In this document: one piece after another, positions 3,891-55,000 of the stretch
How the letters are laid out: every line of letters starts with the position of its first letter
Numbering within the stretch: the stretch's first letter is position 1
Program-made: the position numbers and the translations under genes
Source: Arcuatula senhousia
Lineage: Eukaryota; Mollusca; Bivalvia; Mytilida; Mytilidae
DNA: 64,000 bases
Direction: 5' to 3'
Assembly: GCA_963971305.1 (NCBI GenBank)
Contig: OZ020317.1
Span: forward strand, 18,060,001-18,124,000
The notes under the pieces: model-generated
The model's input: the letters and a program-made list of their open reading frames with translations, nothing else
The model's database searches: none
What the model was told of the DNA's origin: nothing

Positions 3891-4032
3891 CTATACCTGT
3901 AATCTCTTTCTCTCTACGAAGTCTTTCAGTCTGTTTGTCGGAATGGATTTCTGTCTGGGCTGGGACGTCGATGGACCACAGTATTTACGTATCCAGGAAG
4001 CCTCTAGGCATTTACTTGCGCTTGGTCTTGAA
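3891..4032 (-). CDS. KALRN: Kalirin-like exon 23: end of kinase and C-terminus
   Basis: (D)[19 protein letters not shown], then [15 protein letters not shown] and TAG. RPSASxxLxxxW is the last kinase helix, and [11 protein letters not shown] matches SRLTSFIERRK of Trio. Stop TAG is at 3891-3893. The stop overlaps CAG|GTATAG, which also reads as a possible donor, so a longer spliced tail cannot be excluded. I found no exon resembling the vertebrate tail further on. Confidence 0.9.
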
Positions 4033-7000
4033 CTGTAAAACCAAGACATCTTCATATAAGGACGTTTTGCTTTTTGTGCAACTGTACAAATTGACATTTT
4101 TTTTCGGAATTACTCAATCGACCCGGTGTTTTTCCCATGTAAAGTTTTTATTTTGCGCGATTTTCTTTGTGCCATAAAATCATTTTGATCAAACTCTCCA
4201 TATTTTAAAGTGCATGTATATTGTAAATATCCCTATTGGTCTGAAAAGGTTATATGCTACTATCGGTCCCTAGGGTCGCAATTAAAGAGGACGATTTGGC
4301 GCTATAAAACCTGGTGTTACTCACCATTTCTTTTTAAATGACTGTACGAAGTCAGGACCATTAGCATTTTCAATTTCTCCGGTAGGTCTTTCTTGTTTTG
4401 TCTTTTCTCTTGGACATTTAAAACTTATCCAAGTTTGGTAGTTTTATAATTACAGAAATAAATTGAAGCAAGTTAAAACAACAGGCAAACCATTAGTAAA
4501 AGCATTTCACCAGTTCAGAACGGATGAATCCTGCTTTTCTATTTAACTATAACAACGAAATCATTTACTCTTCTTCTGATGTGTCTTTACATTGTTGGAT
4601 TTTTTTTTGCATCCTAAAAGAACTTAGTTTTATGTGCATTTATTTATTTTTGTTTTTCCAGTATCATGCGATTCATATAAATCTTTGGTATTATTCTTTT
4701 GTCGTTAGTTTGTCTTTTCAATGCTTTCGACGTGTTTTCAAAAGACTCCATCCTCACAACCGTTGACTTAGATTCGGAAACAAGCTACATGTATAAGCTT
4801 TAAAGTTTGTGTGATTATCAATTGTAGCAGCCGTCACTCAGCATACTCATATATTTAGCGATCTATACTTACTCAATATCTTCTACGAGTATTTCTCTGA
4901 TGAAACATTCCGCTTCATTAGATATTATGCCAAAGTACTCGTCGGGAAAGCTATAGTCACACTGGACTATGTTAGAGCACGTTTCTTCCTGGCTATCGTC
5001 AAGGAAGGGGGATAATCCACTTAAAAGGGCATACGTTACAACTCCTATGCTCCTATATCAAAAGAAAATTAAAGTTTGTCCTAAAGTTCCAAGTTCAAAG
5101 GTCCGTTCCTCCAATAAAAGTTTGAGGATTAAAATTTCCTGATAAAATGAAAATGAACAAATAAATGTAGCACAAGCTACATACCAAGATTCATAAATTC
5201 TGTATAGTAGTTTCAGATAAATTGCATGGAAAAGATGATAGGTGAAGATTTTCAGCATATTGATAAGTTAAAAGGGCTATTTCTCGCATTTTTTCTTGTA
5301 AAATGCACAACTACATATAGCGTGCTGACTATTTAATCGATTGGCTTCATGAAATTTCAAACAGTAGCTTCGTGTACTTTGGTTGACAGGATGATAAATG
5401 AGTATTTTTCGGCAAGTTTCTAAGTTCAAAGTGCCATTACTCCTACAAAAATTTGAGTACAAAAATTCCCCTGTGATATGCACAACTATATAATATGATG
5501 TACTTCTTACGTACCAAATTTCATTTAATTCTGTTAATGTCATAATGAATAATGAAGCAGGTTTTATAGCTTAATAATATCCAATGTATCATAAGTTGAT
5601 AATTACTCCATATTACAGTCAACAATAATTATGAAAAAGGTAGGAAGGTGCCGCCAGCCAAAAAAACTCTTTAGTTTCCGAAATATATTTTTACTACTTT
5701 GCACGAAATTTTAATGTGAAAAGAAACAAATATGTACCCCTAATACGTTCACAAAAATTATTAACGAAGATTGACAGACGGACGGATGTTCCAAGTGAAA
5801 AGTACAAGGTTTCCGCGTCCTTGATGGGTAAAATAAATTAATGTATTTCTAATTGAATTACCAGATATCTGTTAGCAAGCCCACAGAGCACCCCTTAATG
5901 ATTTCTGGTGCAAGAAACTCTGGACATTCCCGAAATGGGTGGACATAAAAACTGTTATAAATATGTCTTGCATCACCAAAGTCACATAACTTCAGTCTGG
6001 TCTCTCCCATCACCATTTCTATAAGGAGATTTTCAGGCTGGAAAAAAAATATTGCATATGAAGACAAAACCGTGTGAGTATGTCCGTAGTGGCAATAATT
6101 TAGCTCCAGTTCTTTAACACTCAACCAAAAATATTAAAGAAGCTATATTATTGTAGCTTGTCTATAATAATTATTTTTGAATTCTTTAGACAGTAAAACT
6201 TTCCTTAAAGTAAAGTACGATTTGAATTATAATCATTATGATGAATATCACATTATTAAATAAAATCAAAATCTTACTAGAATCAACTTTTTCTTTTATT
6301 TGTATTCAATTGTTATCTGTGTAAACTCTTGCGTCTAGTAAGGACATATATAAATACCTTAATATCTAGGTGAGCGATCCGACAGTTGTGAAGATATTGT
6401 GTTACAGTGAGTAACTGAGCAATATAACCTGCAGCCTCGTTTTCATCAAAGTATGGTCGTCTGCATACAAATTCGAACAAACGCCCAAGTGGCATTCTAT
6501 AAACGATATAATTGCAATGTTTGAAATATTATAATTCAGTATGGTAATACAAAAGGGATTTTGAAATGTATTTATTGTTTTTGTGTATGGAAATATTCCG
6601 ATTTTGCTCCAGGGATCACTTTTGAATTTCAAAAGCCAGATATAAGATACATGTAGGCAAGGCTTACCTACGAAAGACCGGTAGTGCCATCGGTTCTGTC
6701 ACATTTCTCGATTGATGCGAGAAATTTTTCATTTCCAAGTTGACATGTCAACTTGGAACTGAGAAATGTTAAGTTGGAACTGAGAAATGTTGAGTTGGAA
6801 CTGAGAAATGTCAACTGGGAACTGTGAAATGTCAAGTTGGAACTGAGAAATGTCAACTTGGAACTGAGAAATGTTAAGTTGGAGCTGAGAAATGTCAACT
6901 GGGAACTGAGAAATGACAACTTGGAACTGAGAAATGTCAACTTGGAAGTGCGAAATGTCAACTTGGAAATGAGAAATTTCTCGCATCAATCGAGAAATGT

Positions 7001-10000
7001 GACAGAACCAATGGCACTACCGTTCTTTCGTACTAACCATTATCTCATATTGCATTCAGGGTTCCATCTTTTGGTATGTGTTCTATTTTTTCTTTGTTCA
7101 TTTTTCCAAACGCCACGCTATTTTCAACTTTTGAACCACAGGTCTGTCACCTAGCGGTCGATCCTATTTAACATTAACTGATTGTGATTAACTACTTACA
7201 ATGGCATGATGATGACGTAAGCTGATTGGGTGGTATAAATATCATGAACAGGTACCAAATTTTCATGTTGGAGAGATTGCATTGTATTATATTCAGCTTC
7301 CACCAGGTCTACGTCGCTCAGACGTTTATGTATGCATTTGGCCACAAAGTCCCGGTTTGTACAGTTTTTAGTAACCTTCTTCACTATGGAAAACCTGCCC
7401 CTGTTATATAAAAGAAACATTTGTATATTTCAAAATGACTTTTCCCTTTTAAGATTACTATATACACTTCATTCAAAAACTTCAGTTTATAGTAATAAAA
7501 TCTCAGCAAAATAAAAACAAAAGAATAGAAAATAATGAGGTGTGGAATAAGTGTATGCGACACAGCTCACATAACAAGCGGCAATTATGAAAAAAAAAAA
7601 CACAATGGAAAACCTCCGGGAAATAGTCTAAGATACCCCCTTCAAGGAACAGAAAACATCAAAAAGACAAGTACAAACAAAGGCTTTGTTAAATATCCCT
7701 GGCTTAGGACTGGCACATATAAAATTTGGCGGGTTCAACTAGTTTTTGGGCCCAACCTTCCCGCTATCAATAATCCCAGACTAAGCGGCACAAAAATTAA
7801 TACACAATAAAAATCAAATAGATCAACGTTCAATTTCACAAGAGAAAACCTTAGACAAAAGGCAATAAGAACAAATGAATGGTAGAGGAACTCTCTTCAG
7901 AACACTCGCTGTTACTGACAGCTAGCTAAGAATCATTAAACGACTGATGTAAAAAATCAATTTTAAATATATCAATATATCAAAGATATTAATTTCAAAT
8001 TCGACACATCACTTCAAACAATTAATTCAAATTCAAATTTTATTTAGCACAAGTTACGCCCAATGAAGGGCCAAAGGCTACAGACAATAGATTGACAAAA
8101 ATAATGATTTGGTCGAGTATCATCACACAAAACCGACATACTTGATCGCTATAATGCTGGAAAATGACAATTAGTTTAAAAAAAACTTAATAAAGTTTTA
8201 AAGTAAGTTTCAAGTATATCAATATATAGAAATTATTAGAACAAGTTAGGCAATAGGGTAATAATCTAAACTACTTCTATATTTTAATTTTTTCTGCTCT
8301 GAAGACATGAAAGAAGTCAATATATACTCATTACATCGCACAAACAGGCAATTCTCTATTCCTTGTATTCACCATATATGGATGTGTTACTGTAAGAATA
8401 ACTTCTGTGTATAAGAAATCGAGTGTTAAGAGTTGCCATGTCTTTCTCTTTGGCATATCATGACCATTTGGTAAAGCTAATTTCCTCTCTTAAACAGCAT
8501 TTGCATTTTGGAAGGTAAGGAGCCAACAGTAAGTATCAAAGTCTGTCAGAGATTTTTTTCTGGTCTCCCTCCTTTTGTTTTGTTTTTATTTTTCATTTTT
8601 GTTTTTGTATTTCATTTACGAAAGTCTATATTAGTCTGTTTTGGATATAGCACATGTACTTGATTAGGTTTGAACATAAAAGATGAAAAATAGGTAAAAT
8701 TTATTGAATCATATGAACCCCAATGTTCTAGTTTGCAGACTATCAATACAAGTATCCCTAAATAAGGATAAATTTAAGCTACATCAAAATAATTAGATAT
8801 TAACATCAGTTTAGAATTAAATCCATGGACACTTATTTATTTTGTTTCAAATATAATTAGAACCTTCAAGATAATTAAAACTTAGTTTAAGGCAAAAGCA
8901 CATGTACTTGAGCATATGGCCACCGATGGTAAAGATAATTAAAACTAATTAAAGGCCAAAGCTTATGAAATAGGGCATATGGCCACCGATTTGTAAAACT
9001 TATCAAACAATCATTGTTCTATGTCATAAATATTTGGTTACATAATTCTATAGTGTATAAAATGGGAATCTGAAAATCCACTGGTTATTACAGGTATCTT
9101 TTTGTCACAGGAAGGCAAATTCTAAGACGCATCATGAAGGTAAGCTACTGTTGACGGACGTTATATTTGCTCACAAGGGTGCCCTAATTCAAGTATTCGT
9201 TATCCCTTGCAAATTAGATGGGCTTAAATGTACCAACAGTCACTGTGAAACGGCACACTGGCCAAATCGCCGTTAAGTTATATATTATTCAAATGGTGCA
9301 AGCCTGTTTCGATCGGTGTTAGGACATGGTAAATATAGATACTGCAAAATATTACAAAACGAATAAAATAAACGAATTTTTTATTATAAATATAACAAAG
9401 GAATTATAATGTCTTGAATCAGATATATTATTCAAACTAACTTAGTGTTATAAAAAACAAATGGGCGGAGTCTTAATTTTTAGCTTTGATATACTGTAGT
9501 AATACATTTTTCGGGAGAGTTACTTGCATTTTTGCTGGGTCTAAATATGGTATCGTTTTAATCATATTTAGAGAACCACCTGACATAAGTTTATTTAAAC
9601 AGTATTATTTTTGTTTACCTTTTTAAGGAAGGCGCTTTGTCATTTGTTTTTTTTTTAAATAATTTAAGCCATTTTTGAGAAAAGTGCCTTTCTCTTTTCC
9701 TTCGGTTTAAAATATCATCATTTTAATCCATTTTTAGGGAAAGCACCCTTTTCTCTTGTTTTGTTTAAAAATTGTATCATATTGATCTTCCATGTTCGGT
9801 AATTCTGTAATTTCTTTATTAATCTTTTCTTAGGGAAAGCACCTTGCACTTTTGTTGTGTCTTGCTGTTGCCTTACTCGCCACCACCACGGAGGCGGCTG
9901 ACGATGCAGTTAAATTATGCAAAGGGGATTGCAAAGCCGTCATGAAAGAATGCAAGTCGACCTGCGAAGACAAAAAATGTAAGAAGGCCTGTAAGAAGGA

Positions 10001-19000: not shown

Positions 19001-22000
19001 AAAAGTTAACAGACAGAAGCGACGGACGGAAGACGGACGACTAATAATGAGACAACAGCTCACATGACTTTCGGGTCAGGTGGGCTTGTAAAGCCAGGGT
19101 TGGTGTTTTCCAATCTACTAGTAGAGCTTAGGACTAAGAATCGTCCTTTTTGAGACTAGACTTGGTGTTATGCCGTGTTCTCGAAGCTGTTCTATTGGCC
19201 ACATTTTTAGGATAAAGACTTCAAATAAGATTACGTCAATTATAGACCTTTACACATCTTATACACTCACATTTCGTTACAAGTGATAGTGGTATGTCAG
19301 TAAAAGATCGCCCCGACGACCGGAGACCGGAGTGTGTGATATAACTGACACAAAACTATTTTACATCCCAGCCTTCAAAATATGCCATGCAAAATTTTAA
19401 TACAAACCATTAGATTTACATTCTGTGCGTTTAGAATCAATTAGAAAACATTTTAATTAAATATAATAGTTCAATTTTGACTGGTAAGTTTCGGTTCTTC
19501 GTTAGTTATTGCTTTACTCTAAAGCAGCGTGGTTTCGTCTATATCCGGGTAGTGAACATGAAATGGGTGATATAATGAACATGAAATGATGATGAAGTGG
19601 AGAAAAGAAGGACACAAAGCCAATTTTAACTTCCAAAAAACAAGGGGCTCCCAGGAGCCTGAATATCTCACCTGAACTATACAGATACACATATTTTGTA
19701 GATATTAGTGTGCTTAACCATGTGCGATTTAAATTTCTGAAATATCTTATTAAGTTTTCAAGATATAGGGCTTAAATAAGTGCAAAATTTGGCAAAAATT
19801 ACGAAAACAACTCCCACTTCAACAGTAGGATCTTTTTCAAAATTTCAGAGCAGGTAGATCTTTATATGCTGATCACTTTTGATTTGCACAATTTTGATAT
19901 CTGTAACCATTTTTGAGTTATTAGCAAAACCCTGTAATTTACCCCTATGTTCTATTTTTAGCCATGGCGGCCATATTTTTTACCAATCAAAAATCCAAAC
20001 GATAGAATTGTAGCAGATATTCTATTGAACATGTGTGCCAAGTTTAAATGCAGTTGGTCTTATGGTGTCAGACAAGTAAATCTTTGAAAATCAGGGGAAA
20101 AGAAATGAAAAGTGGTAAATTTTGACGTTTTAAGGGCCACAACTCCTAAAAGAAATAGTTCTACAGCTTTGACCTAATTACATTAAATGTAGATCTTGAA
20201 GGTGTAGATCTTAATAATATGCAATTTAAATTTTTGAAATATCTTGCATAGTTTTCAAGATATAGAACTAAATAAGTGCAAATTTTTGAAAAAAAATCCG
20301 GAAATAGGGCAATAACTCCTACATCAGTTGTTGGATCTTCTTGAAAATTTCAAAGCAGGTAGATCTTGAGGTGCTGATCACTTTTACTTATGCCAGAATT
20401 TTGATATCTGTTACCGTTTTTGAGTTATTAGCAAAAAACTGAAATTTACCCCTATGTTTTATTTTTAGCCACGGCGGCCATGTTTTTTCGACAAATCAAA
20501 AAATCCAAACGACAGTTTTGTAGCACAAATGCTAATAAACAACTGTGCTAAGTTTGGTTGAAGTTGGATGTATGGTGTCAGACGAGTTAAGCTTTGAAAA
20601 GGTTTACGGACGGACGACGGACGCACGACGGACGCTTTCGGGTCAGGTGAGCTAAAAAAGAAGTGATGGACAGGGACCTGCAATTGAATGGACATCCTAA
20701 GGGTCCTACTCTTACCAAGACCTGCAGCAGGGTTCTTTAATGTGCGAAGAAAGCGACATTTTTCCCCGACACTGCACTTAGGGCACACATCCCAGTCGCT
20801 TTGTTGGCAAAGCGGTCCGACCCGACGTCAGGCTTCCAAGTGCTCTCCGACAAGCTTAGCGCTGATGTCAGTCTATTCGCCACCCAGGACTAGCACGGGT
20901 TAGTTTCGGTACTTCATAACGAACAAAAGTTTATTTTCCTCATCAATTGCAACATACTTAGTTTAAACCCGCCACATTTATTTAAATATGTGTCTGTCCT
21001 AAACCAGGAATCCTTGACTAAGCTTTTGTTTGCATTTGTCAGTTTTATTTTTTTGTTATTTGTTTGAGAAGGGGATCTTTCTCTGAGTTTTCCAGGCCTG
21101 GGCGCCACAAACCTAAAAATATACTGAAGTCCGAGAATGATTCTTATTTTCCATGGCGACTTCCATAGTTTTTCATGTATTGTGCCGCCCAGGCCATGGC
21201 TGGATTTGAATTGTTAATGCATCTTATCTTTGGCCGATTGCAAAACGGTGAGCAGCGCGTTTAAGGTTGCTAGCTGTTTTTCATTGTGTTTTTTTTTAAT
21301 TTCTGGTTGTTTATGCGGGTCTATTCCGCATGTCAATATCTCCTATTGTTGTATACTAATCCCAATTTCCCACTGAAACACTTATCTGAATGTGAATTAT
21401 AACATATACACATCAGTTTCGAAATGTTAGAATTATATGAAGATTAGTGATTGCATATTCAATATTGCAAGACTGGAACTAGGAAGTCAAAACTGCAATA
21501 CATTTTCTGAACACGCATAATGTTATTTTTTTCCAAACAGATAGAAGCTTCAAAGCCATTTGATTATTGTTAAAAAAAATATCAAAAACTCCTTAAAAAT
21601 ATTTGTTTTTAATTTAAAATCTGAGAATTTAAAAAATATATAGATTTTTACCCTTTAATGGTAGGAAAGGTTCATTCTCTTTTCAGTGAATTTCTGATCG
21701 ATATGGGTATTTTTAAAAAAGCAATGAGACGATCGAATTTTATTTCATGGAAATTGCATTGGCTGGTATCGTTTTTTTATGCCTATATCATATATTTTTT
21801 TACTTGCCCCAAAGTACAATCGTGGCATTCAAGAACTCCATGTACACCTACCTGGCTAATTCCTCCACCTCGGCGAAGTCACGTTCATACGTCGATTTCC
21901 ACCTGGATGTTGAACTCTCTATTCTTTCATTCAGTTCTGAAAAAAAATATCATATGATATTTTGAATGAAGCAAACAAGTACCAACAGGCCATTCGAATG

Positions 22001-25000
22001 TCGCATGTCGGAAAAGTAAACACAAGATCAACTTTGACATAACACGAAAAAAAAAACATTACATATCAAACACACATAAACACACACAATATCGCATTAC
22101 TTAGAGATTTACTATAGTAAAGCTGTTTTTAGTTACGCTGTTTAAAGTTTGTGCGGAGGATATAGGAAGGGCACTATACCCCTTTTACAAATAAAAAAGT
22201 GCTGAACGAACACATCTTTGACCCCGTATTCTAATTCTCCATCCTTTGAAACCACTAGATATAAAATTTTGTTGAAATCGAAGCATATAGACTAATTGCA
22301 CATGTTTGGGCCCGAAAATCGCATTTTCGCAAATAACTCGAAAACCGTAAATATCACTTCAACTTGTATTTCGAATTATTGAAGAGCTCCTTTTGCTCTA
22401 TTTACCTTACAAATTTCAGCCTTCTACCCACCTAGGTTATTACATTAAGTATGGATGAAATCGGTCATTTTTTACAACTTTGAAAATTTAAATTATAGAT
22501 TGGGGGTCGGCTTATGATAATATATTTATATACCAAGCTTGGTGCATGCCAGCCATTTTGAATATGGCGACTATTTTGATTTTTTTTAACCAATCAGGTT
22601 CTCTTTAATTTTGTCAATGAACGTCCAAATTTGGTCGAAATCTTTCCAGAGGTTTCCGAGTTAATTTTGGGGTACCGTTGGAAATGGCGGCCATTTTGAA
22701 AATTCTAAAAACCTTATGCACATCTTCAGTAACCCATCTTCCATCATATGTTGTTTTGTGAAAATCCTTCAAGTCGTTTATGAGAAAAGTTGCGGACACG
22801 TTCATGCCGCGGAGAAAGAAGGAAAAAATAGTAAGAAACAGAATAAAAACAATATGTCTCCAAACTTTCGTTTGGAATACATAATAATACATAATAACAA
22901 GAGGAACTGCTTACAAACACAATATTACGCAAAAATACTGTCGAAAGGTGCACCGGAAGTGTAAGCAGTTCATACTCGATAGTTTATTATAGTGTCATTC
23001 CTACACACATCCTACACACAAGCTTAATACGGTTTAATACGTACATTTCAATGACATGTTTGTCAACGTGACAATGTTTGAAAAATGTGAGACTCGTGTG
23101 TGAAATCAAAATATGTTTAGTCTAACCAAAGCGGAACATTTTCCAAGCAAGTTGCGACGTGTTTTATTGTAAAAAGGGGGAACTGCTTACCCTTCCTGAT
23201 CACCTGAGTACACTTTTGTTACATGTGGGTGCTGGTTACAGTTTTTTAATGCTTATCTGTTTCTCCATGTTATTTTCGTGTATATTGACTGGTTTATTTT
23301 GCGCATTCGGACTTTGACCTCGAATGATTCATTGGTACTTCTTTGCTTCTTGTACATGGTCTCTAAATCATAAAGGCTGGTAGAAAGCACTTGATGTCCT
23401 CTACACGTGGTAAAACCAAATATAGTATTGAGTAATCAAAGTTTCTATTGATTGATAAGATCAGATGTATAGAACCATGGAAGTAATATAGACTCAATAT
23501 TACTTCCATGATAGACCTTATTTAACTTAAAAATGTAAAAACGGGTTGTTTTTTTTCAGGTAATTTCGTTATGTTGTATAGGCATATTTCAAATAGTAAC
23601 CCCTCATCACTCATCAGCAGTATTTGAATCAAAACATTGGAAGAAACGTAGTAAAAACTAAAAAGTTCGAACAGGAAAGCCAAACCCTTAGCCGAAATCT
23701 ATATATGTTACAGTAAAAGTGTATAATTAGGAATTATACATAATTCCTGAAAATTTCAGTAAATATGTATAATTACTGGCCTCATTAGTTATTATACATA
23801 ATTACTGAAATTTTCAGGAATTATGCATAATTACTAAAATATTGAGCAGTAATTATGTATAATTCCTAAAGACTAATGAAATGGTATTAAACTTGTTCTT
23901 ATTTGTTAAAAAACATGTCAGGCAAAGCAAAATAAGCACAATGCATTTCACAAAATTCTAATCCCTTTAGATTACACATATTTATTATGGATGTTGGATT
24001 TGGAAATATCTCCAGTTCTTATATTGTGCAAGTGACTGGCACATTATTAAATTTAAAGAAATGTACAAATCGCAACTTATTGCACATTTAACTGTCTTTT
24101 CATCACAAACATTTGTTTGTTTCAAACCTGTATTAGCTTATGTATATGAAACCGAATCAGTTTAGCTAAAATAGAATTTTAGTTAAAATTTAAGTTTGTT
24201 TTATTTAATTAAGTTAGATTATTTACAAGGATCAAATATAGGCCAGTCAATTTAACTGTAAGGCTAGGGAATCCTGCAATACTACCCAAAATACACACGA
24301 GTCTTAAACAGTTGCCCATGATGTGGACATTTCAATGCTAAGAATTAAAGCCTGAGTTGTATATTCTTTGACGCACTTTCTGATACTGTTTTTAAACGGA
24401 AAATAAATACATGTAGAGACTTTTAAAAGATTTTTAAGCTGTTTTTTCCTCTGACCAAAACTTAGCAAAACAATATTCAAAAAACTGTTCACTAACTTTA
24501 AATTTACTTAAATTGACTTCACTATCATAATTTTTTTTCATTTTTATACCATAACTGAAATTTTCAAAATACTTAACATATTAAAAGAGAATTAATGAGT
24601 GGTTGAATAAAACAATCAGAGTTATTTAAAAGTATTAGCTTGATAAAATTTGTGTAAAGAGATTGATAATTTCAACAGATATAGTACAAATGTATTGGAA
24701 TGGTTGTGCCCTATTTTACAAATTTACTGAAATCAAATCAGTAAATTTGTATAAAAACTTCTATAAAAATCAGTATTTATGTATAATTACTGGTCAGAAT
24801 TAGGAATTATATATAATTCCTAACCCATTTAGTAATTATACATATTTACTGAAATTTCAGGAATTATGTATAATTCCTAATTATACACTTTTACTGTAAC
24901 ATATATACCACATTCAATACAAGCAGAAACTCTTCTTGCCCTTCACGAGTACCTGAATTCACTTTCGTTACGAATAAAAATGTCGTCGCTGATCTACGTT

Positions 25001-28000
25001 ACAGTTCGGTTGATTTTTTTTGGATTTTTTTTTATCTGTTTCTCCCTGTAATTTTCGTTTACATTTTTGACTTGTATTATCTATGCCTTTACGGACATTT
25101 GGCATTCGAATTGTCTCATTGGTGGTTCTTTGCTTCTTGTATATAGGCTCTATTCCTCACTGCCGAGAGAAAGCTCTTGTCAAATATTGAGCTTTTCAAA
25201 ATATGAACCGATACAATGTTAATTGATTGGGTCAGATACGGAACTTACAAACAAAAGAACGTGCGCATTGACGTCATTGTTGGACACGTGCTTTTGTTTG
25301 TAAGATCAGTGCAGCTGATTTCTTATTAACACTAACGAAATCGAACTCATGACCCCTGTTTGGAACGTAAGCAATTGTCTTTGTTTTTCTGGTATGTTTT
25401 AAAGGAACCGGCTAAGTCGTTTAAAGTTCAAACGATCAGCTCTCACACTTGTTTTAATCTGAAACATACTACAGGTACATTGGAAATTAAATAATTGGAC
25501 TTTTTTAAACGATATTTTGAATGATTTATTTTTATTTCAAATATGAACACAATGACTGTTGTGTAATTTTGTATGCCAAAAAGTTACAGCGCTCACAGGG
25601 ACTTGCTCCCCTCTATCAATATTTTGTTAGAGTCAATGTGCGGTACAAAAAAAAACCGTACCGCACATTGACTCTTAACAAAATATTGATAAAGGGGAGT
25701 AAGTCCCTGTGCAGCGCTTCGAACTTCTATAGGAAAGAGCTGACACGATTAGGATACGATAAGGGATACACAGCTATACGATTGGGATAGACCTTTATTT
25801 GTTCAGTAAAAGGATGGTTGTATACGATAAAGACAACAGCTATATGTTAAGAACAGAGCTATAAATGTCCGATTTAAGGAACAGCTATACGATAGGGGTA
25901 TGAATGTCAATGAAGCGTGAAGCTAAACGATCAAGACATGTACAGCTATACATGTACGATAAAGGGTGGAGCTATAAGATAAAATGAACAGCTATACGAT
26001 CAAGGTAAAGCTATGAGGCTTGCTTAGGGTATATTGGGATATGGGATATTCACACATTTTTTTCATGGGATAAGGGATATTTGAGGCAAAACTTACTGGG
26101 ATATGGGATATTTTAGTCCATTTAATTTAAAGGGATATGGGATACTAGAAAAACACTTTTTGGGATATGGGATATTTGATGAAAAATTTACGGGGATATG
26201 GGATATTGGTACTCCCCCTAAACAAGCCCCAGCTATGCATGTATGAGAAAGAGTACAGCTTTACCTTAAATAGACCAACTATTCGATAAAAGGTAAAGAT
26301 AAATATGTGCAATAAACGGTACAGCCATATTAATAATTATTCGACAATAATAGAGACACATGTACCATAAAAGATATAGGTGAGGAAAATCTATACATGC
26401 ACAATAAAGGGTGGATAAAATAAAATAAAGGGTGGAGATATACTATGGAAAGAACAGCTATGCGATCGATGTAAAGATAAAGGGTACAGCTATATCATAA
26501 AGAGGAGAGCTATTCGATAAAGGTAGAGAAAACATGTACTATGAAAGCTAGATAAGGTAAAGCTATACATGTACAAGCACGATAAAAGGTAAAGCTATAC
26601 GATGAAAGAACAGGTGAACGATATAGGTAAAGCTATTACATGTTCGCAAATGGGTACGGTTATATCATTTAGAGACCAGCTACTCGATAAAGGTAAAGCT
26701 ATTACCTGTATGTTCGACAAAAGGTAACAGCTTAGCCACAAAGAGACCAGCTAACCGATCATGGTAAAGATAAAATGAAAAGCTAAACGATCAAGGGAAA
26801 GCTATACACGTGTGACAAAAAGTACAGCTTTACCAAAAAATGGACCAGCTATTCGATATAGCCTTTTTTATAGGTAAAGATATAAATGTGCGATAAACGG
26901 TACAGCTATACCAATAATTATTCGGCAAGGGTAAAAACATACATGCACTATAACAAGGAGGTCTAACCGTTTATCGAGAAATATGGTCCGTTAAAAGGTG
27001 TTTCATGGTTTTTGTGGTCCGTTAAAGTCGCCGTGACAGTCTGTTAAGTAGTTTTATGAAGAAGAAAAAGTATTTATTTTTACGAAATTAACTCTGAGGC
27101 TAAAATATAGTAAATAGGTGTGGTCTGTTCACTGATACCTACCGTTATCTGAAGGAATGGCACAGGCTGAGACGGTGTGCTCGGTTCACTGATACCTACC
27201 GTTATCTGAAGGAATAACCACATGCTGAGACGGTGTGCTCGGTTCACTGATACCTACCGTTATCTGAAGGCATGGCCACATGCTGAGACGGTGTGCTCGG
27301 TTCACTGATACCTACCGTTATCTGAAGGAATAGTCAAAGGCTGAGACGGTGTGCTCGGTTCACTGATACCTACCGTTATCTGAAGGAATAGCCACAGGCT
27401 GAGACGGTGTGCTCGGTTCACTGATACCTACCGTTATCTGAAGGAATAGCCACAGGCTGAGACGGTGTGCTCGGTTCACAGATACCTACCGTTATCTGAA
27501 GGAATAGCCACAGGCTGAGACGGTGTGCTCGGTTCACTGATACCCACCGTTATCTGAAGGAATAGCCACAGGCTGAGACGGTGTGCTCGGTTCACAGATA
27601 CCTACCGTTATCTGAAGGAATAGCCACAGGCTGAGACGGTGTGCTCGGTTCACTGATACCTACCGTTATCTGAAGGAATGGCACAGGCTGAGACGGTGTG
27701 CTCGGTTCACTGATACCTACCGTTATCTGAAGGAATAACCACATGCTGAGACGGTGTGCTCGGTTCACTGATACCTACCGTTATCTGAAGGAATAACCAC
27801 ATGCTGAGACGGTGTGCTCGGTTCACTGATACCTACCGTTATCTGAAGGAATAGCCACAGGCTGAGACGGTGTGCTCGGTTCACAGATACCTACTGTTAT
27901 CTGAAGGAATAGCCACTGGCTGAGACGGTGTGGTCTGTTCACTGATACCTACCGTTATCTGAAGGAATGGCACAGGCTGAGACGGTGTGCTCGGTTCACT

Positions 28001-31000
28001 GATACCTACCGTTATCTGAAGGCATGGCCACATGCTGAGACGGTGTGCTCGGTTCACTGATACCTACCGTTATCTGAAGGAATAGTCAAAGGCTGAGACG
28101 GTGTGCTCGGTTCACTGATACCTACCGTTATCTGAAGGAATAGCCACAGGCTGAGACGGTGTGCTCGGTTCACTGATACCTACCGTTATCTGAAGGAATA
28201 GCCACAGGCTGAGACGGTGTGCTCGGTTCACTGATACCTACCGTTATCTGAAGGAATGGCACAGGCTGAGACGGTGTGCTCGGTTCACTGATACCTACCG
28301 TTATCTGAAGGAATAACCACATGCTGAGACGGTGTGCTCGGTTCACTGATACCTACCGTTATCTGAAGGAATAACCACATGCTGAGACGGTGTGCTCGGT
28401 TCACTGATACCTACCGTTATCTGAAGGAATAGTCAAAGGCTGAGACGGTGTGCTCGGTTCACTGATACCTACCGTTATCGGAAGGAATAGCCACATGCTG
28501 AGACGGTGTGCTCGGTTCACTGATACCTACCGTTATCTGAAGGCATGGCCACATGCTGAGACGGTGTGCTCGGTTCACTGATACCTACCGTTATCTGAAG
28601 GCATGGCCACATGCTGAGACGGTGTGCTCGGTTCACTTATACCTACCGTTATCTGAAGGAATAGCCATAGGCTGAGACGGTGTGCTCGGTTCACTGATAC
28701 CTACCGTTATCTGAAGGAATAACCACATGCTGAGACGATGTGCTCGGTTCACTGATACCTACCGTTATCTGAAGGAATAGCCACAGGCTGAGACGGTGTG
28801 CTCGGTTCACTGATACCTACCGTTATCTGAAGGAATAGCCACAGGCTGAGACGGTGTGCTCGGTTCACAGATACCTACCGTTATCTGAAGGAATAGCCAC
28901 AGGCTGAGACGGTGTGCTCGGTTCACTGATACCTACCGTTATCTGAAGGAATAGCCACTGGCTGAGACGGTGTGGTCTGTTCACTGATACTTACCGTTAT
29001 CTGAAGGAATGGCACAGGCTGAGACGGTGTGCTCGGTTCACTGATACCTACCGTTATCTGAAGGAATAACCACATGCTGAGACGGTGTGCTCGGTTCACT
29101 GATACCTACCGTTATCTGAAGGAATAACCACATGATGAGACGGTGTGCTCGGTTCACTGATACCTACCGTTATCTGAAGGAATAGTCAAAGGCTGAGACG
29201 GTGTGCTCGGTTCACTGATACCTACCGTTATCGGAAGGAATAGCCACATGCTGAGACGGTGTGCTCGGTTCACTTATACCTACCGTTATCTGAAGGAATA
29301 GCCATAGGCTGAGACGGTGTGCTCGGTTCACTGATACCTACCGTTATCTGAAGGAATAACCACATGCTGAGACGGTGTGCTCGGTTCACTGATACCTACC
29401 GTTATCGGAAGGAATAGCCACAGGCTGAGACGGTGTGCTCGGTTCACTGATACTAATGCTATTATTTGAACAGACTCGAAACTGGTATGTAGTTCCTGGT
29501 TTCAAATCTCCAATGAACTGTGACGTGTTTGGAACATATGGAATAGCAGTCTGCCACGCTTCACTACCTGTGAATTAAAGAGTGACGAAAATGCAATTAT
29601 TAAGCTTTTACTACATGAGCAAAACGAGAAATAAACTTAAATTTGAATTTTTACTTCGAAAAAAAATTGTGTTTAAAAGACTTTACACCTCACTTGCTTC
29701 CGTTTTTTTTTTTTAGGTATTTCGCTTTGAGATACATCGATCTTGGTTTATAAGATAGTGATTAGCATTGCTATTATGAAAAAAAATTCTATTCGCTTAA
29801 AAATGCACTCGAGTTTATGAGAGAAATGTTGGAAGCACAAAATTTGTTAATATAAAAAAAACAGTTGGATATTCAAGTAGAATGAGTATGTACATGACAC
29901 AATATCGCAGCAATTTAAAAATCCGGAAAATAAAGTCTTCATTGTTAAATAACATTTGAAGAATAGTATATATAATATTTTACCATTTTCTCTATACTCT
30001 ATAGTAAAGCCCTGTATCTGAACATTTCCAGGCGGCGGTGCCCATTCTAGGTGAACCGAAGTCCCCACGTGACTACGTATAACTGGTCGAGACGGTGGCA
30101 GAGGGCGATCTACAAAAAAAGTTTGATTCAGTGTGATACGCAATGACAGATTTAAGGGGCGGGTAGCCCGGGATCCACCTTATGAAACGACTTTCATTTA
30201 CTTTAAAATACTTAATTAAGATTAAAAAATTATTCGGATTGTGAATGTGCAATTGAGTATCGTCACTTACCAATAACGTTTAGAGTAGCTTTGGTAACGG
30301 TTGACCCGATTTCACTTGTTGCGATGCAGGAGTATTCTCCACTGTCAGCTGGGGTAGCATTGTGTATCTGAAATGAACATAAAAATGATGGGACTACATA
30401 AAATTTCTGATCTGATTCACAGGCACTTGTTTCGAGAAAAAATAACTTATATACTAACCATACCATGGTTAGTATGTAATAGACGATAAAGAGATGTGGA
30501 TTAAGTGTACGCGACACGACCAACATTAAAGAAACGGCAATTTAAAAAGTCACAATGGAAATCAGCCAGCAGTCTTCAACATGACCAAAGGTCACTGCTC
30601 GCCGTCTTGCATTGGCCCAAGACTAAAAATACAATACATAAGATTCAAACAAATCCCTAGAATATCAAAGAAAGACCCATTTCTGGACATAAAACAAAAA
30701 ACAGATAGTAGACAAGGACAAACAAAAGCTTTGACAAGGATTCCTGGCTAAGGACAGGCACATATAAAATGTGGCGGGGTTAAAACTAGTTTTTTGGGCC
30801 CAACCTATTGTTTATCTTGTATAAAGCACAAAAAATAACACACTTTAAAAATCAAATCGAAAAAAGTTAAATTCACCAAGAGAGAACCTGAGACAACAGT
30901 ACTTTACGAGAACAACGAAACGTAAAGGAACTCCCTTGAGAACACTCGCAGTTATTGACAGCTAGCTAAGAAGCATTTATCGACTGGTGTAAAAAAATCA

Positions 31001-49000: not shown

Positions 49001-52000
49001 TTGAACAGTATTGTTGCAAATTGAGTTAGTAGTAATATATATCATAAAATATTCTTAGCTGTGGAAATTTTTAGAAAGTCAAATTTTTCAAGTTGTTGAA
49101 TATCCTATATCTGTAGTCTCTGAAGTTTAAATGTAGTTCAAGCTCATAAAGTCCTCGTTTAAGAACAACTTGAAACATATATCGGATTATAATTGTCAAT
49201 TGTATCCAAAGACGTATAACTCATTCTGCAAAAAATTACGATTTCATAATATTTTTCCTTTAAAAATATCATGACATTTTTGATCGTTTAAATAGTAACA
49301 TCGTCTTTATCTTGCATGTCAAAGTTGAAACAACTTTCTTTGTAGCACCATAGTTTAAACCTGTAAGTTTGAGAGTCCATTTGCACTACTTTATTAAACA
49401 GCACCAAATTATTATTACCTTTGAGAAAGTCCCCTTGCATATCTAAGAGAGATGTAATCTTCCTTGTCCATGTGTTTTTTACAGCTTCACTTGGAGCTTG
49501 GATGACAAACTTTGAATCTGACCCTGGTGTTTTGTTGATCAACAGAAATCGTAATGGTTCACCTTCCACTGTTTTGGTCAGTGCCATATTATTAACCTGA
49601 AACACAAACAAAATGTAAGGTTAAAATGTTGATTGAACGCTGAATAACATTTCAATGAGTAATGTTGGGGTTTAACAAACTTTTTGACAAAAATAAAGGG
49701 TGGTCAGTTATCAGGGGCTTGGCTGGATACAAAGGAAATCCTCGAAGCATGATCAAAGTGCTCCCCCCCCTTTAACCAGCCAGTTGACCCCCCTTTTGAA
49801 AAATTATTAGGAAATCCACCACTATTAATGGTAGAAGAAAACATATTTTAAAATCATATTTCAAAATTTACTATAGATTAGCTGGAATCATTACTTTCAT
49901 CACATAACAAAAAACATCTTAGTTAACATGCCACAAAAATGACATCTGTGTATAAATCATAACACATGGAGTGGTGCACATCTTTATTGTCTATGCAATC
50001 ACTGTGTAAAATTTCAGAGAAATCCAGGTTTTTACAAGCAAGTGTTAGAATAAATGATACAGGTACCCCTAATTTGGATCAGACAGCCAGTTTTATTTCT
50101 TCTTTGACCTTTTCCTGTCCTTTGGAGCATTCCAGGTAAAACCCAAAATTCATTCTCACATTAATTCTAATTTTCATTAGACATATGTTGCCCCTCTTTC
50201 TCTCACCTTAATACTATTTTTGTAAACATAATTTGCATAAGACATGTTCCTTTTTTTTCTCACCTTCATACTATTTTTGTAAACATAATTTGCATAAGAC
50301 ATGTTCCCTCTATTTTCTCACCTTAATACTATTTTTGTAAACATAATTTGCATTAGACATGTTGCCCCTCTTTTTATCTTCCTCACTGAAGATGATGATC
50401 TGTTCAAACAAGAAGACCCGTCTCTCTTTAAACTTGGGTTGTGATTGTCCCTGTGGTGACTCTGATACCAACAATGTATCCTGAAGCAGTAAATTCCCTT
50501 GAGCAGTTATCTTTCCCTGAAAAGACATACAACATAAGTTGATGAAAACAAAATCAAACACCGAAATTGGTACTCAACAACTCATTCTTTACTTTATCAT
50601 TCCCTGAAAAAGTAATTTGACACATAAAATAAATGGAAACCCAAAGTCTTTACTTTTATTTGCCTCTAGCTGTTAATATTCTGATGTGGTAGCAAATTAT
50701 GCTATACAATACTATCTTTATATAACCTGTAGATTATACCATTCAACTGACAAAAATTAACTCTGAAATAAGTGCTTACAACTTATTTATATTTCAAATT
50801 AATCTTGGTTGGACAATATCCAGTAGAGTCAAAGTTGGCTATTCACTGCTTTCCTTGTTAATTTCCTTGTTAATAGGATGTGAAATACATGCACATAACA
50901 TAACTGTAGTTATGATATGTGCATCTATTTTAAATCCTATTTCAATGGAGCTTGTTATGGATTCCTATCTTAATGCACTAACTTTAATGAAATACTATTT
51001 GGGACCAATAGAGGCAAACTTTAATCATAGGATCGGAAACCAGGAAATAACCTTAACAATAAAGTTGGATATGCATATCATTTAAAACCTTTTAATAATT
51101 ACTTGAGTAAGACCAACAAAGCCTTAAAATTTACATCAGAACTCTGAAGCAACAAACTCTAATATGATTTCAAATCCTAGCAATATTAGAATATCGGAAA
51201 AAGCCGTTTTACTAAGTTCATATCTGCTGACAAGAAATAACCCCTTGAAATATGTCCATATAAAAGCATCTTATTGACACCCACTTTGGTAGAGATGTAC
51301 TTTTAAACTTACATCAAAACCCTGAAGACGCCCAACTTGCATCATGTCATTGGCAGCCTTTGGGACCACACACATCACTTCTAATGCCTTCTTCAGTTGT
51401 TTTGTATTTTCGCCAGCTCTCTCTGTGTATTTCTGGATATCCTACAACAACAAAAGGAAACATAAATTTCAATCTTGGTTAAAAATGGGACAAATCATGA
51501 AATAAGTGCTACAATATCAGGCCCCCTGTTCTACATGTAATGCTGCATTCCAAACAAAGAGTTGCTACAAAGACTATAAATTTCCCCCCATAATCAATGC
51601 TACTCAAGATGTTCTGGTTTTCTCTAAATAATAGAAGCAAATTTTATTGGAAATCATTTGTTTAACAACAAGCATTCTGAGAGTATTACAAAACAATACA
51701 TAGTCCCCTACTGGCCTCATATTTCAGTCACTGGTAACAATTTGTCAAACAAATAAATACCTAAACTTGATCAGTCTATTAACTACAAGGAGCAATAAAA
51801 AAGTGTAGAAAATAAAATTGCAATGGATTTTCAAATTTCAAAGGGCCATAACTCCCACCAAAATTTGTGGACCGGCACGAAACTAAAACTTAATCTGTAA
51901 CTCATCATAGTAAAATCACATACCAAAAATCAGTTCATTATCTATAAGCGTTTAGAAAAAAAGTGCTGAAAACTGAAATTTAGTGAATTTTCAAAGTTCA

Positions 52001-55000
52001 AAGGGCCTAACTCCCATAAAAATTTGTTGACCATCATGAAACTCAAAATTATTCTGTAACTATTGATGGTAAAATCACATACCAAAAATCAGTTCATTAT
52101 ATATAAGCGTTTAGAAAAAAGGTGAGGAAAACTGAAATTTTAGTGAATTTTCAAAGTTCAAAGGGCCATAACTCCCATAAAAATTTGTGGACTGACTTGA
52201 AACTCAAACTTGATCTGTAACTCATCATGGTTAACTCAGATTAAAAATATCAGTTCATTATCTAAAGCCTTAAGAAAAAAAGTGCGGAAAACTGAAATTT
52301 TAGTGAATTTTCAAAGTTCAAAGGGCCATAACTCCCATAAAAATTTGTGGACTGACTTGAAACTCAAACTTGATCTGTAACTCATCATGGTTAACTCAGA
52401 TTAAAAATATCAGTTCATTATCTAAAGCCTTAAGAAAAAAAGTGCGGAAAACTGAAATTTTAGTGAATTTTCAAAGTTCAAAGGGCCATAACTCCCATAA
52501 AAATTTGTGGACTGACTTGAAACTCAAACTTGATCTGTAACTCATCATGGTTAACTCAGATTAAAAATATCAGTTCATTATCTAAAGCCTTAAGAAAAAA
52601 AGTGCGGAAAACTGAAATTTTAGTGAATTTTCAAAGTTCAAAGGGTCATAACTCCCATAAAAATTTATGGACCAGCACGAAACTCAAACTTATTCTGTAA
52701 CCATTGATGGTAAAATCACATACCAAAAATCAGTTCATTATCTATAAGCGTTTAGAAAAAAAGTGCAGAAAACTGAGGCGTGACAGACGGACAGACCGAC
52801 AGAGGGCAAACCTATAGTCCCCTTCGGCTTTCGCCGGTAGGGGACTAAGTAGGGGACTTAAAATGGTACATAGTTTAACAAAACCATTTTACTTATTGAG
52901 ACTTTGGTAAAGATTTTAAATTTTAATTCAAAGCATGAATTTAATGAATCTATCAGTGCTCTTTTGTACTTTGAGTGCACCTTTTAAAAGAGTTGCTACC
53001 TATGCACAGGAACTGAAATATCATTTCTCAATGAAAATCCATTCAGCAGATTAGAAGGAGTAGTGCATATCATTCTTAAACATAAGGTGCCTAAGTCAAT
53101 TTTTTTTGCATAGGAATCCCCAGATATCAATCTGAGATATCTATATACATGTAATATAAGGTACACATCTACAGTATGTCACAAAGGTTCTGTTTGTTTC
53201 ATGAAATTCATGTAGAAGTATAGAACAAGAAGCAGATAAACTAAATGTCAGATGGACTACTTGTGTACACTATACAAGAATCACCAATAAAACCTACAAG
53301 GAGCAGGCTGAACAAAATAAAGATTTCAAATCATTTTGTTTGCTTTGGAACCTACCCTGAGTAAAAGTTGATACTTCATAATTCTCTGTACTGGTTTGAT
53401 AAGAATGTCGGGTAACATTAATCTGTGTCCTAACTTCTGTCGTATGTCCTCGAACACGTCTAAATATTCTGCCACTATAAACTCTGACTTAGGCTTGTTC
53501 TCACAGTATTTGACATACATTCTAAGTCTACGCTCCTGTCAAATCAAGCAATGAAAAAATGAACATAATATTAAGACAACAAAGTTTCTGATCTCTGCTA
53601 CAAATTTCAATAGTGTTTAAATGGCTAAAAAATTGTTTTTTTTTTGTAATGAAAACTTTATTCCTTAAGGTGGAGCAGGACAGTGGTCATGTGACTTGTC
53701 CAAAATAAAATGAAATTTGAAAAATATTTTGAGATTTTTGTGTTTTTAGAATCTTTATACCTTGTTAAGGCACATTTTATCAATGGGATTAAAAGTTGTA
53801 TTCTAAAAGTAGTATAAATTCTTAGCTAAAGTATGGTCAAGGGAGATAATTTGGCAAAAATCATGAAAAATCATCGTTTTTGGCTCCTATTTTTGCTTGT
53901 ACATAAAAATCAAGGGAAGAAACCCCACTTTAAATTTATTTAAGATGATGAATTCTTGCAAGATCTATAAAATGTCAAAAAATGAGGGAAATCTATTGAC
54001 CGGAAAATAAATGATGGAACATTTTTGTGTGTTTTTATGGCTTTTCCTATATAATTCATAGTAAAATACTGATACTTTAACGTGATATAACTCGAAAAGT
54101 AGGGAAGAAACCCATGAATTTTGAATCAAATTATGAAAAAGTACATCATTTTGGACATTTATTTTAATTTTGAAGAAAATCTATTGACATATTAATTTTG
54201 GACCTAAGTGCCACGCTCTACCTTAAATATGATCATCAAGTTTGCACAATTGCCTTTAAATAACAATAGTAATCTGAGTATGTATACATGTCCAATTAAA
54301 ATGAATGTACTTGGTATCTTAAGCCATTGAAATTTTCCTTTATATACCATTTGGTTATAGAGTGATGTTTTTACAAATTCATTTAATAGTCATCTTTGCA
54401 AAGTAACAGAGAATTAAATCACTTTATAGATCTTCAAAAAACTAAAGGATATGCAGAGCATTTTCTTTCAACTTTAATGTCTGTGTTAGACTGTGTTGAT
54501 ATTATTAATATATTTTCATAAATTACACTTACATATCTAGTAAATAGACTAGCCATGCCATCAACGTCTTCAACACATTTCTCTACTTCAGGTAAAAAAT
54601 TTCTAAAAATACAGTAAAAACATACAAATCTTAACAAGTGAAAGGTTTCTCATAAGCAAAAAACAGCCTAACCCTCTGACACTATGAATTATTTTAAAAT
54701 TAGTCACATTTTCATTTCTTTGTTTTGGATACTGTTTATTTCTTTTCTTGGAATTCATAAATCATTGATGTGATTTAGTTAATATGAGTGTATTTGTTTG
54801 TTGTGTTGTTTTTTGCTTGATCTTGCTTGGCCTGTTTCCAACCAGATTTCTAAATCTCAGTTCCCCCAATCCTCCTTCAAACCTAAGTGTAAAACACCCT
54901 CCCTGTGCCAGTCATAGACCTGATGGTTATTTTAATGATTTTCTGACCTTAACCTTATCTCCCATTCATAAACTTGATTTCTATTTCCCGCATACATCCC

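What the first reader, a model, noticed from the sequence alone, without database searches (positions are those of the whole stretch)
27118..29452. An intron that begins with about 40 tandem copies of its own 5' splice site
The 57-58 bp unit spans the exon/intron border of the FN3 exon (last ~52 coding bases plus G|GTAG). About 40 copies follow, and by eye every one keeps the GT and nearly all keep AACG|GTAGGTATC. The array is therefore a bank of potential U1-binding sites just inside a 7.5-kb intron. If any later copy were used as donor, translation would read Gly-Arg-Tyr-Gln-stop, removing the kinase domain. The donor retention could be recent homogenisation or a functional constraint such as U1-based suppression of early poly(A) sites, decoy donors, or tunable kinase-less isoforms. 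I do not know of a described case like it.
Basis: partly seen in the sequence, partly recalled or inferred. Interest (0 to 1): 0.88.

Follow-up and report, generated by a model that had tools for sequence, protein, structure and literature searches.

The report
Repeated splice sites in Trio/Kalirin gene
The Trio/Kalirin gene of a probable mollusc carries 40 near-identical 58-base copies of one exon's end with its splice site, an arrangement already known from lancelets and two human genes; it is likely a neutral by-product of frequent local duplication, although the extra sites would cut off the kinase end of the protein if they were used.

Summary
Window 27117-29453 holds 40 full units of 58 or 57 bp plus a 22-bp partial one. 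Each repeats the last 54 bases of an FN3 exon and the first 4 intron bases, so all 40 units carry a GT donor. The gene is Trio/Kalirin on the minus strand, with an intact kinase downstream.

Donor columns vary as often as the rest (3 of 9 against 14 of 49, p=1), though a post hoc singleton test hints at constraint (p=0.015). The kind is already described: lancelet 'mirages' (PMC3087553, PMC3902484), human ABCA7 (PMC5954066) and human IFI6.

New here: 9 of 110 splice boundaries of this gene have local duplicates, against 49 of 400 random intron sites and 0 of 54 exon-interior tests. Boundaries are hit at about the background rate. Outside the main array, copies of at least 85% identity keep GT/AG (10 of 10), older ones less often (3 of 5). 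The 40-copy array looks like the largest of a recurrent, probably neutral class. Use of later donors, predicted to give Gly-Arg-Tyr-Gln-stop, is untested.

The parts
27117..29453 (-). minisatellite of 40 full units (58/57 bp) plus a 22-bp partial unit; unit = 54 exon-end bases + 4 intron bases
29400..29567 (-). FN3 exon (168 nt); its last 54 nt are the exonic part of unit 1; authentic donor ACG|GTAGGT
21937..29399 (-). intron of 7463 nt; its first 2283 nt are array
21852..21936 (-). linker exon (85 nt) between FN3 and kinase, acceptor TTTTTCAG, donor CAG|GTAGGT
7200..7400 (-). first kinase exon (GRFSIVKK...)
6358..6496 (-). kinase exon
5862..6037 (-). kinase exon
4873..5052 (-). kinase exon
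3897..4032 (-). C-terminal exon
3191..3211 (-). probable last coding exon, SLELFS-stop, placed by reading against the end of P0001
30271..36924 (-). span holding the SH3 and Ig exons (36924-36704, 36248-36095, 33282-33067, 30367-30271)
29984..30109 (-). first FN3 exon
50168..50375 (-). second donor-spanning array (58 bp x 3.5) at the end of the GEF2 PH exon (donor AAG|GTGAGA, exon end 50322)
54872..55188 (-). donor of a DH exon and two degenerate downstream copies, both without GT
55291..55377 (-). acceptor of the same DH exon and one upstream copy keeping AG

Best explanation
This is a 'mirage', a minisatellite whose 58-bp unit spans an exon-intron boundary of a Trio/Kalirin gene, and it likely arose by neutral tandem duplication and was kept uniform by unequal exchange, with the first donor predicted to remain the main one used. 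Shown: the array, its 40 GT donors, block-wise repeats inside it, no excess of invariant donor columns, an intact downstream kinase, and eight other splice boundaries of the same gene with local duplicates at the cut used. Inferred: one duplication copied the end of the exon plus the first 4 intron bases; because GTAG is followed by the exonic GT of the next copy, each junction rebuilds a usable GTAGGT donor; multi-unit exchanges then grew the array to 40 copies. Inferred: the spliceosome mostly joins donor 1 to the linker exon, since the kinase exons stay open and conserved. Predicted and untested: some transcripts use later donors and, whichever one is used, add the same tail, Gly-Arg-Tyr-Gln-stop, giving a kinase-less protein or a degraded mRNA.
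For: Array and units. Homogenisation: 17 unit types among 40, 61 of 780 unit pairs identical, exact repeats of 258, 256 and 195 bp at offsets of about 10, 13 and 24 units. No donor constraint by columns: 3 of 9 donor columns variable against 14 of 49 others, Fisher p=1; chance that two given columns are both invariant is 0.50; variable columns by codon position 4, 4, 6. Background: 9 of 110 boundaries against 49 of 400 intronic sites, p=0.31, and 0 of 54 exon-interior tests. Splice dinucleotides in 15 copies outside the main array: 10 of 10 kept at >=85% identity, 3 of 5 below; the longer query adds two degenerate copies (at 177904 and 169284), both without it. Kinase intact. In the 13 homologous proteins printed the FN3 region runs through a short linker into the kinase; two partial Mya models (P0012, P0018) have an altered FN3 end. 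Precedent: lancelet mirages reported not to disturb splicing.
Against: All 3 donor-column variants are singletons while only 2 of 14 other variable columns are (post hoc p=0.015), and by cells donors differ less (3 of 360 against 69 of 1960); both could hint at constraint, though cells are not independent. RNA folding ranks donor 1 among the least accessible of 40 (ranks 38, 40, 39), which does not favour its preferential use. No RNA data. Only one gene was tested for the background rate, and the score cut was set after a first run.
Confidence: 0.8

Rival explanations
1. The array is a splicing rheostat: its 39 extra donors divert part of the transcripts to a kinase-less Trio/Kalirin, and copy number tunes the share.
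For: Any later donor gives the same GRYQ-stop. In human ABCA7, use of the donor one unit downstream is observed and VNTR length affects splicing. Human kalirin has kinase-less isoforms, but by alternative transcript ends. Donor 1 is predicted no more accessible than the others.
Against: No donor-column constraint. A search with a GRYQ-ended query, limited to proteins of about 182-579 aa, gave 2 hits at E<=1e-20, P0001 (505 aa) and P0005 (574 aa), both with kinase sequence and neither ending in GRYQ; this is weak, as the species' own RNA may not be in the database. Boundaries are duplicated at about background rate.
Confidence: 0.08
2. The array is a U1 decoy bank that protects the long intron from premature cleavage and polyadenylation.
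For: 37 of 200 GTs in the array part of the intron pair with a U1 9-mer (recalled sequence) at least as well as the authentic donor, against 2 of 312 GTs in the remaining 5180 nt; 15 AATAAA/ATTAAA signals lie in the rest of the intron, none in the array.
Against: No donor-column constraint; the signal count was not compared with other introns; no U1 or 3'-end data.
Confidence: 0.04
3. Each unit junction also holds AG|GT, so the array could be removed stepwise by dual-specific or recursive splicing.
For: 38 of 40 units end in AG followed by GT, and 37 of 40 carry CTTCAG just upstream of the donor. A paper on dual-specific AGGT sites describes 8 tandem repeats with such a site in the polyubiquitin gene UBC (PMC10809524, passages).
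Against: Pyrimidine tracts are short, and TAG|GTATCA pairs weakly with U1 (-5.6 against -8.5 kcal/mol). Nothing shows use.
Confidence: 0.03
4. The array is an assembly artefact or has a wrong copy number.
For: A 2.3-kb array of near-identical units is easily collapsed or expanded; no reads were available.
Against: Units fall into 17 types in a non-periodic order, the unit was found only at this locus, and degenerate boundary repeats occur elsewhere in the gene. Copy number itself remains unverified.
Confidence: 0.05

Closest known systems
Lancelet 'mirages' (Adh3, globins BflGb6/BflGb9, TnC, PGBD5); PMC3087553 and PMC3902484, passages read
   Same: Tandem repeats span an exon-intron boundary, many units carry AG/GT signals, unit lengths 10-160 bp, concerted evolution inside the cluster.
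   Different: Those are in cephalochordates, and the two BflGb6 haplotypes have 6 and 3 units; here a probable mollusc with 40 donor copies. RT-PCR evidence of normal splicing exists there, not here.
Human ABCA7 intron 18 VNTR; PMC5954066, passages read
   Same: The first GT of the 25-bp repeat is the exon donor; use of the donor one unit downstream frameshifts to a stop; reference allele has 23.7 units.
   Different: The repeat is placed in the intron beginning at GT; here the unit also repeats 54 coding bases. ABCA7 alleles of about 12 to 427 units are known; no population data here.
Human IFI6 (6-16/G1P3) minisatellite, Turri et al. 1995; not held, title in reference lists and citing sentences seen in PMC4526556 and PMC3618361
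   Same: A minisatellite supplies several splice donors to one transcript; two downstream units are cited as used.
   Different: Shorter unit (recalled, 12 bp); donor use there is cited as giving protein isoforms, here a stop is predicted.
Internal tandem repeats at exon-intron boundaries of human segmental-duplication genes; PMC2812944, passages read
   Same: Variable tandem repeats at a boundary, proposed to form novel introns through cryptic splice sites.
   Different: On average 4 repeats of 30 bp, in recent paralogues; here 40 units in one gene.
UBC polyubiquitin dual-specific splice sites; PMC10809524, passages read
   Same: Tandem units each with an AGGT core that might serve as splice site.
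   Different: There 8 tandem repeats in a polyubiquitin gene; here an intronic array with a stop in the first extension.
Trio/Kalirin family
   Same: SH3, Ig, FN3, kinase order by Pfam; upstream part aligned exon by exon to full-length orthologues.
   Different: No member with such an array came up in the searches made, which looked at proteins and not at introns of relatives.

Membership tests
Mirage (boundary-spanning minisatellite) | Tandem repeat unit spans an exon-intron boundary | tested here: met
   Unit 1 covers 29453-29396, exon ends at 29400
Mirage (boundary-spanning minisatellite) | Repeat units carry splice signals | tested here: met
   40 of 40 units with GT
Mirage (boundary-spanning minisatellite) | Concerted evolution inside the cluster, edges excluded | tested here: inconclusive
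   Block repeats up to 258 bp; unique unit types 8 of 20 near the exon and 2 of 20 at the far end, which hints at an edge effect on one side
Mirage (boundary-spanning minisatellite) | Length polymorphism | not testable with these tools
   One assembly, no reads, no second copy found
Mirage (boundary-spanning minisatellite) | Normal splicing not disturbed | not testable with these tools
   No RNA of this species; homologous proteins run from FN3 through a linker into the kinase
Trio/Kalirin gene | SH3_KALRN, I-set, fn3 and kinase domains in order | tested here: met
   PF23587 4.6e-24, PF07679 7.1e-20, PF00041 1.6e-13, PF00069 1.5e-45
Trio/Kalirin gene | Full-length colinearity with orthologues | tested here: met
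   Homologous exons from orthologue residue 18 to near the C terminus over about 176 kb; start codon not sought
ABCA7-type donor VNTR | A downstream unit's donor is used in RNA | not testable with these tools
   No RNA data

The most novel reading that the evidence does not exclude
The array is a working splicing rheostat: forty equal donors compete, and allele length sets how much Trio/Kalirin is made without its kinase, in a genome where such boundary repeats recur along a gene and so offer many dials.
Probability: 0.07. Interest if true: 0.85.

Novelty: new member of a known kind. Interest (0 to 1): 0.48.

Why it matters
It is a natural test of how a spliceosome chooses among 40 nearly identical donors in one intron. 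The wider result may matter more: in this one gene about 8% of tested splice boundaries (9 of 110) sit next to local duplicates, close to the intron rate (49 of 400). That suggests boundary repeats are tolerated rather than targeted, and that the lancelet phenomenon has a counterpart in another invertebrate group. Such repeats have been proposed as a source of new introns (PMC3087553, passages), so a genome rich in them would let that idea be tested.

Tried and rejected
Hairpin choice of donor: I considered that the junction might fold so as to expose donor 1; folding gave the opposite (ranks 38, 40 and 39 of 40 for accessibility).

Donor constraint: tested by variable columns, GT invariance, circular windows and singletons; the singleton test and the raw cell counts hint at constraint, the others do not.

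Truncated isoform in public proteins: a GRYQ-ended query found 2 proteins at E<=1e-20, P0001 and P0005, both with kinase sequence.

Paralogue or second haplotype: none with the 80-base array probe; the protein search for a Trio paralogue did not complete.

Background rate in a second gene: a CaMKII search returned mostly single-block kinase matches and was not used; a search for myosin exons did not complete. The rate therefore rests on one gene.

Boundary test choices: 56 exon clusters, 55 kept (1 dropped in refinement); the last short exon is not included; exon ends are heuristic; one boundary (PH exon donor) was corrected by eye from 50301 to 50322 after reading; the null was 60 random intron stretches and 150; the score cut of 19 was chosen after the first run. 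Without that cut the counts are 13 of 110, 59 of 400 and 4 of 54. With the earlier control they are 11 of 110 against 17 of 110; those control tests were paired forward and backward at shared positions, and one position lay in the main array. The exon at 64617 rests on one orthologue only and its unit is short and AT-rich. The donor at 51313 passed but not the cut and is not counted.

Mollusc precedent: an abalone TSSK1-like paper (PMC6905558, passages) describes a length-polymorphic 27-bp minisatellite in an intron; the passages do not say that it spans a boundary.

Species: not identified. A look at one bivalve genome paper failed twice on its search terms and was dropped.

Other ORFs of the window: 10 pieces, no Pfam match.
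Full report
WHAT IS THERE. TRF reports an array at window 27117-29453 with period 58 and 40.4 copies. Read on the minus strand it is 40 full units (35 of 58 bp, 5 of 57 bp) and a 22-bp partial unit. Unit 1 begins inside a coding exon: exon 29567-29400 ends in its first 54 bases, and the last 4 bases (GTAG) begin the intron. The next unit starts with GTATC as in the exon, so the junction reads ACG|GTAGGT and rebuilds a donor. All 40 units keep GT; 37 of 40 share one 9-mer. An 80-base probe of the unit matched only this locus in the 1.04-Gb assembly.

THE GENE. Pfam scans give SH3_KALRN, I-set, fn3 and Pkinase on the minus strand. The closest protein, P0001 (77% identity over 76% of the query; 505 aa, source without a name), let me find the linker exon at 21936-21852. 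The intron is 29399-21937, 7463 nt. With 160 kb more of the same contig, orthologues of a scallop, Solemya, a limpet and a clam (P0122, P0124, P0125, P0126; names) align along about 176 kb, 55 exons refined. The kinase exons are open and align to orthologues to near the C terminus.

WHAT LATER DONORS WOULD DO. From the exon frame the intron reads Gly-Arg-Tyr-Gln-stop. Any later donor therefore gives the same truncated end. By duplex energy with a recalled U1 9-mer the authentic donor (-8.5 kcal/mol) ranks fourth of the 11 gene donors scored; 36 of the 39 other copies have the same 9-mer, and the rest score -8.8, -8.1 and -4.8. Folding does not single out donor 1; it ranks 38, 40 and 39 of 40 for accessibility at three window sizes. 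Whether later donors are used cannot be said from sequence.

IS DONOR RETENTION SELECTED? Of 58 unit columns 17 vary. Donor columns: 3 of 9; others: 14 of 49; Fisher p=1. Two given columns are both invariant with probability 0.50. The donor window has 3 non-consensus cells of 360 against 69 of 1960 elsewhere, but cells are copies of shared events, and 21 of 58 circular windows do as well. Against my reading: the 3 donor variants are all singletons, which has a post hoc chance of 0.015. The array shows 17 unit types, 61 identical pairs of 780, and exact repeats of 258, 256 and 195 bp, the mark of multi-unit exchange. Variable columns fall on codon positions 1, 2, 3 as 4, 4, 6, so the units show no clear coding constraint.

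A RECURRENT CLASS. TRF also showed a 58-bp x 3.5 array at 50168-50375. It spans the donor of the GEF2 PH exon, and the two best-aligned copies keep GTGAGA. I then tested every refined boundary of the gene: a 50-base piece (40 exon, 10 intron) was aligned to the adjacent 2.5 kb and to distant introns. Nine of 110 boundaries have a local copy scoring at least 19 and above all null draws: donors 177904, 167204, 64617, 55188, 50322, 29400 and acceptors 169284, 146907, 55291 (coordinates with 1 = C15:18060001). The same test gave 49 of 400 random intronic pieces (main array excluded) and 0 of 54 exon-interior tests; boundaries against introns p=0.31. Without the score cut the counts are 13 of 110, 59 of 400 and 4 of 54. 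Alignments show copies covering the boundary for the 8 other boundaries. The acceptor at 146907 has four upstream copies, all with AG. Among 15 copies outside the main array, 10 of 10 with at least 85% identity keep GT or AG and 3 of 5 below that do; two more degenerate copies seen lack it. The numbers are small, but they fit decay with age rather than maintenance.

HOW IT MOST LIKELY WORKS. A genome with frequent local tandem duplication occasionally copies a segment that crosses a splice boundary. If the first donor still defines the exon, the change is tolerated. Exchange between units then lengthens and homogenises the array. This predicts variable length between individuals and low-level use of later donors; both are untested.

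COMPARISON. Tandem repeats spanning exon-intron boundaries were named 'mirages' in lancelet Adh3 and found in globin genes, with RT-PCR suggesting no disturbance of splicing (PMC3087553, passages). PMC3902484 adds PGBD5 and TnC (passage). In human ABCA7 a 25-bp VNTR begins with the exon 18 donor, and retention of one unit is observed (PMC5954066, passages). The IFI6 minisatellite paper (Turri 1995) is not held; I saw its title and citing sentences in two papers. Human segmental-duplication genes with tandem repeats at boundaries are described in PMC2812944 (passages). My search aimed at molluscs (one of its mollusc papers opened, the others seen as listing only) and searches with related terms (listings) showed me no boundary-spanning repeat in a mollusc, in a library that lacks most subscription papers. 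So this is a new member of a known kind, possibly the first seen in a mollusc, with more donor copies than the two BflGb6 haplotypes (6 and 3 units) though fewer than long ABCA7 alleles.

LIMITS. One assembly, one gene for the background rate, heuristic exon ends, no RNA, no population data, and a cut-off set after a first look.

Noticed in passing
window 50168-50375: Second donor-spanning array, 58 bp x 3.5, at the GEF2 PH exon of the same gene.
   Followed up: yes
L025 around 3907-4442 (region 146907-147442): Acceptor of an internal exon with four upstream copies of the intron-exon boundary, spaced roughly 110-145 bp, the nearest nearly identical.
   Followed up: partly
window 54872-55377: DH exon with copies of its boundary on both its acceptor and its donor side; the donor-side copies are degenerate.
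   Followed up: partly
G000:C5 about 32.73-33.03 Mb (also C740): Dozens of 249-aa kinase-like open frames with nearly the same score, many at about 1806-bp spacing.
   Followed up: no
window 39816-41318, 37789-38440, 51797-52776, 33597-34206, 42739-43320: Other sizeable tandem arrays in this 64-kb window.
   Followed up: no
window 31130-31771 minus: A 213-aa open frame inside an intron of the Ig region without a Pfam match.
   Followed up: partly
array units, column 47: 37 of 40 units carry CTTCAG upstream of the donor; the exonic unit and two others carry CTTCCG, a synonymous difference in the exon that removes an AG.
   Followed up: partly
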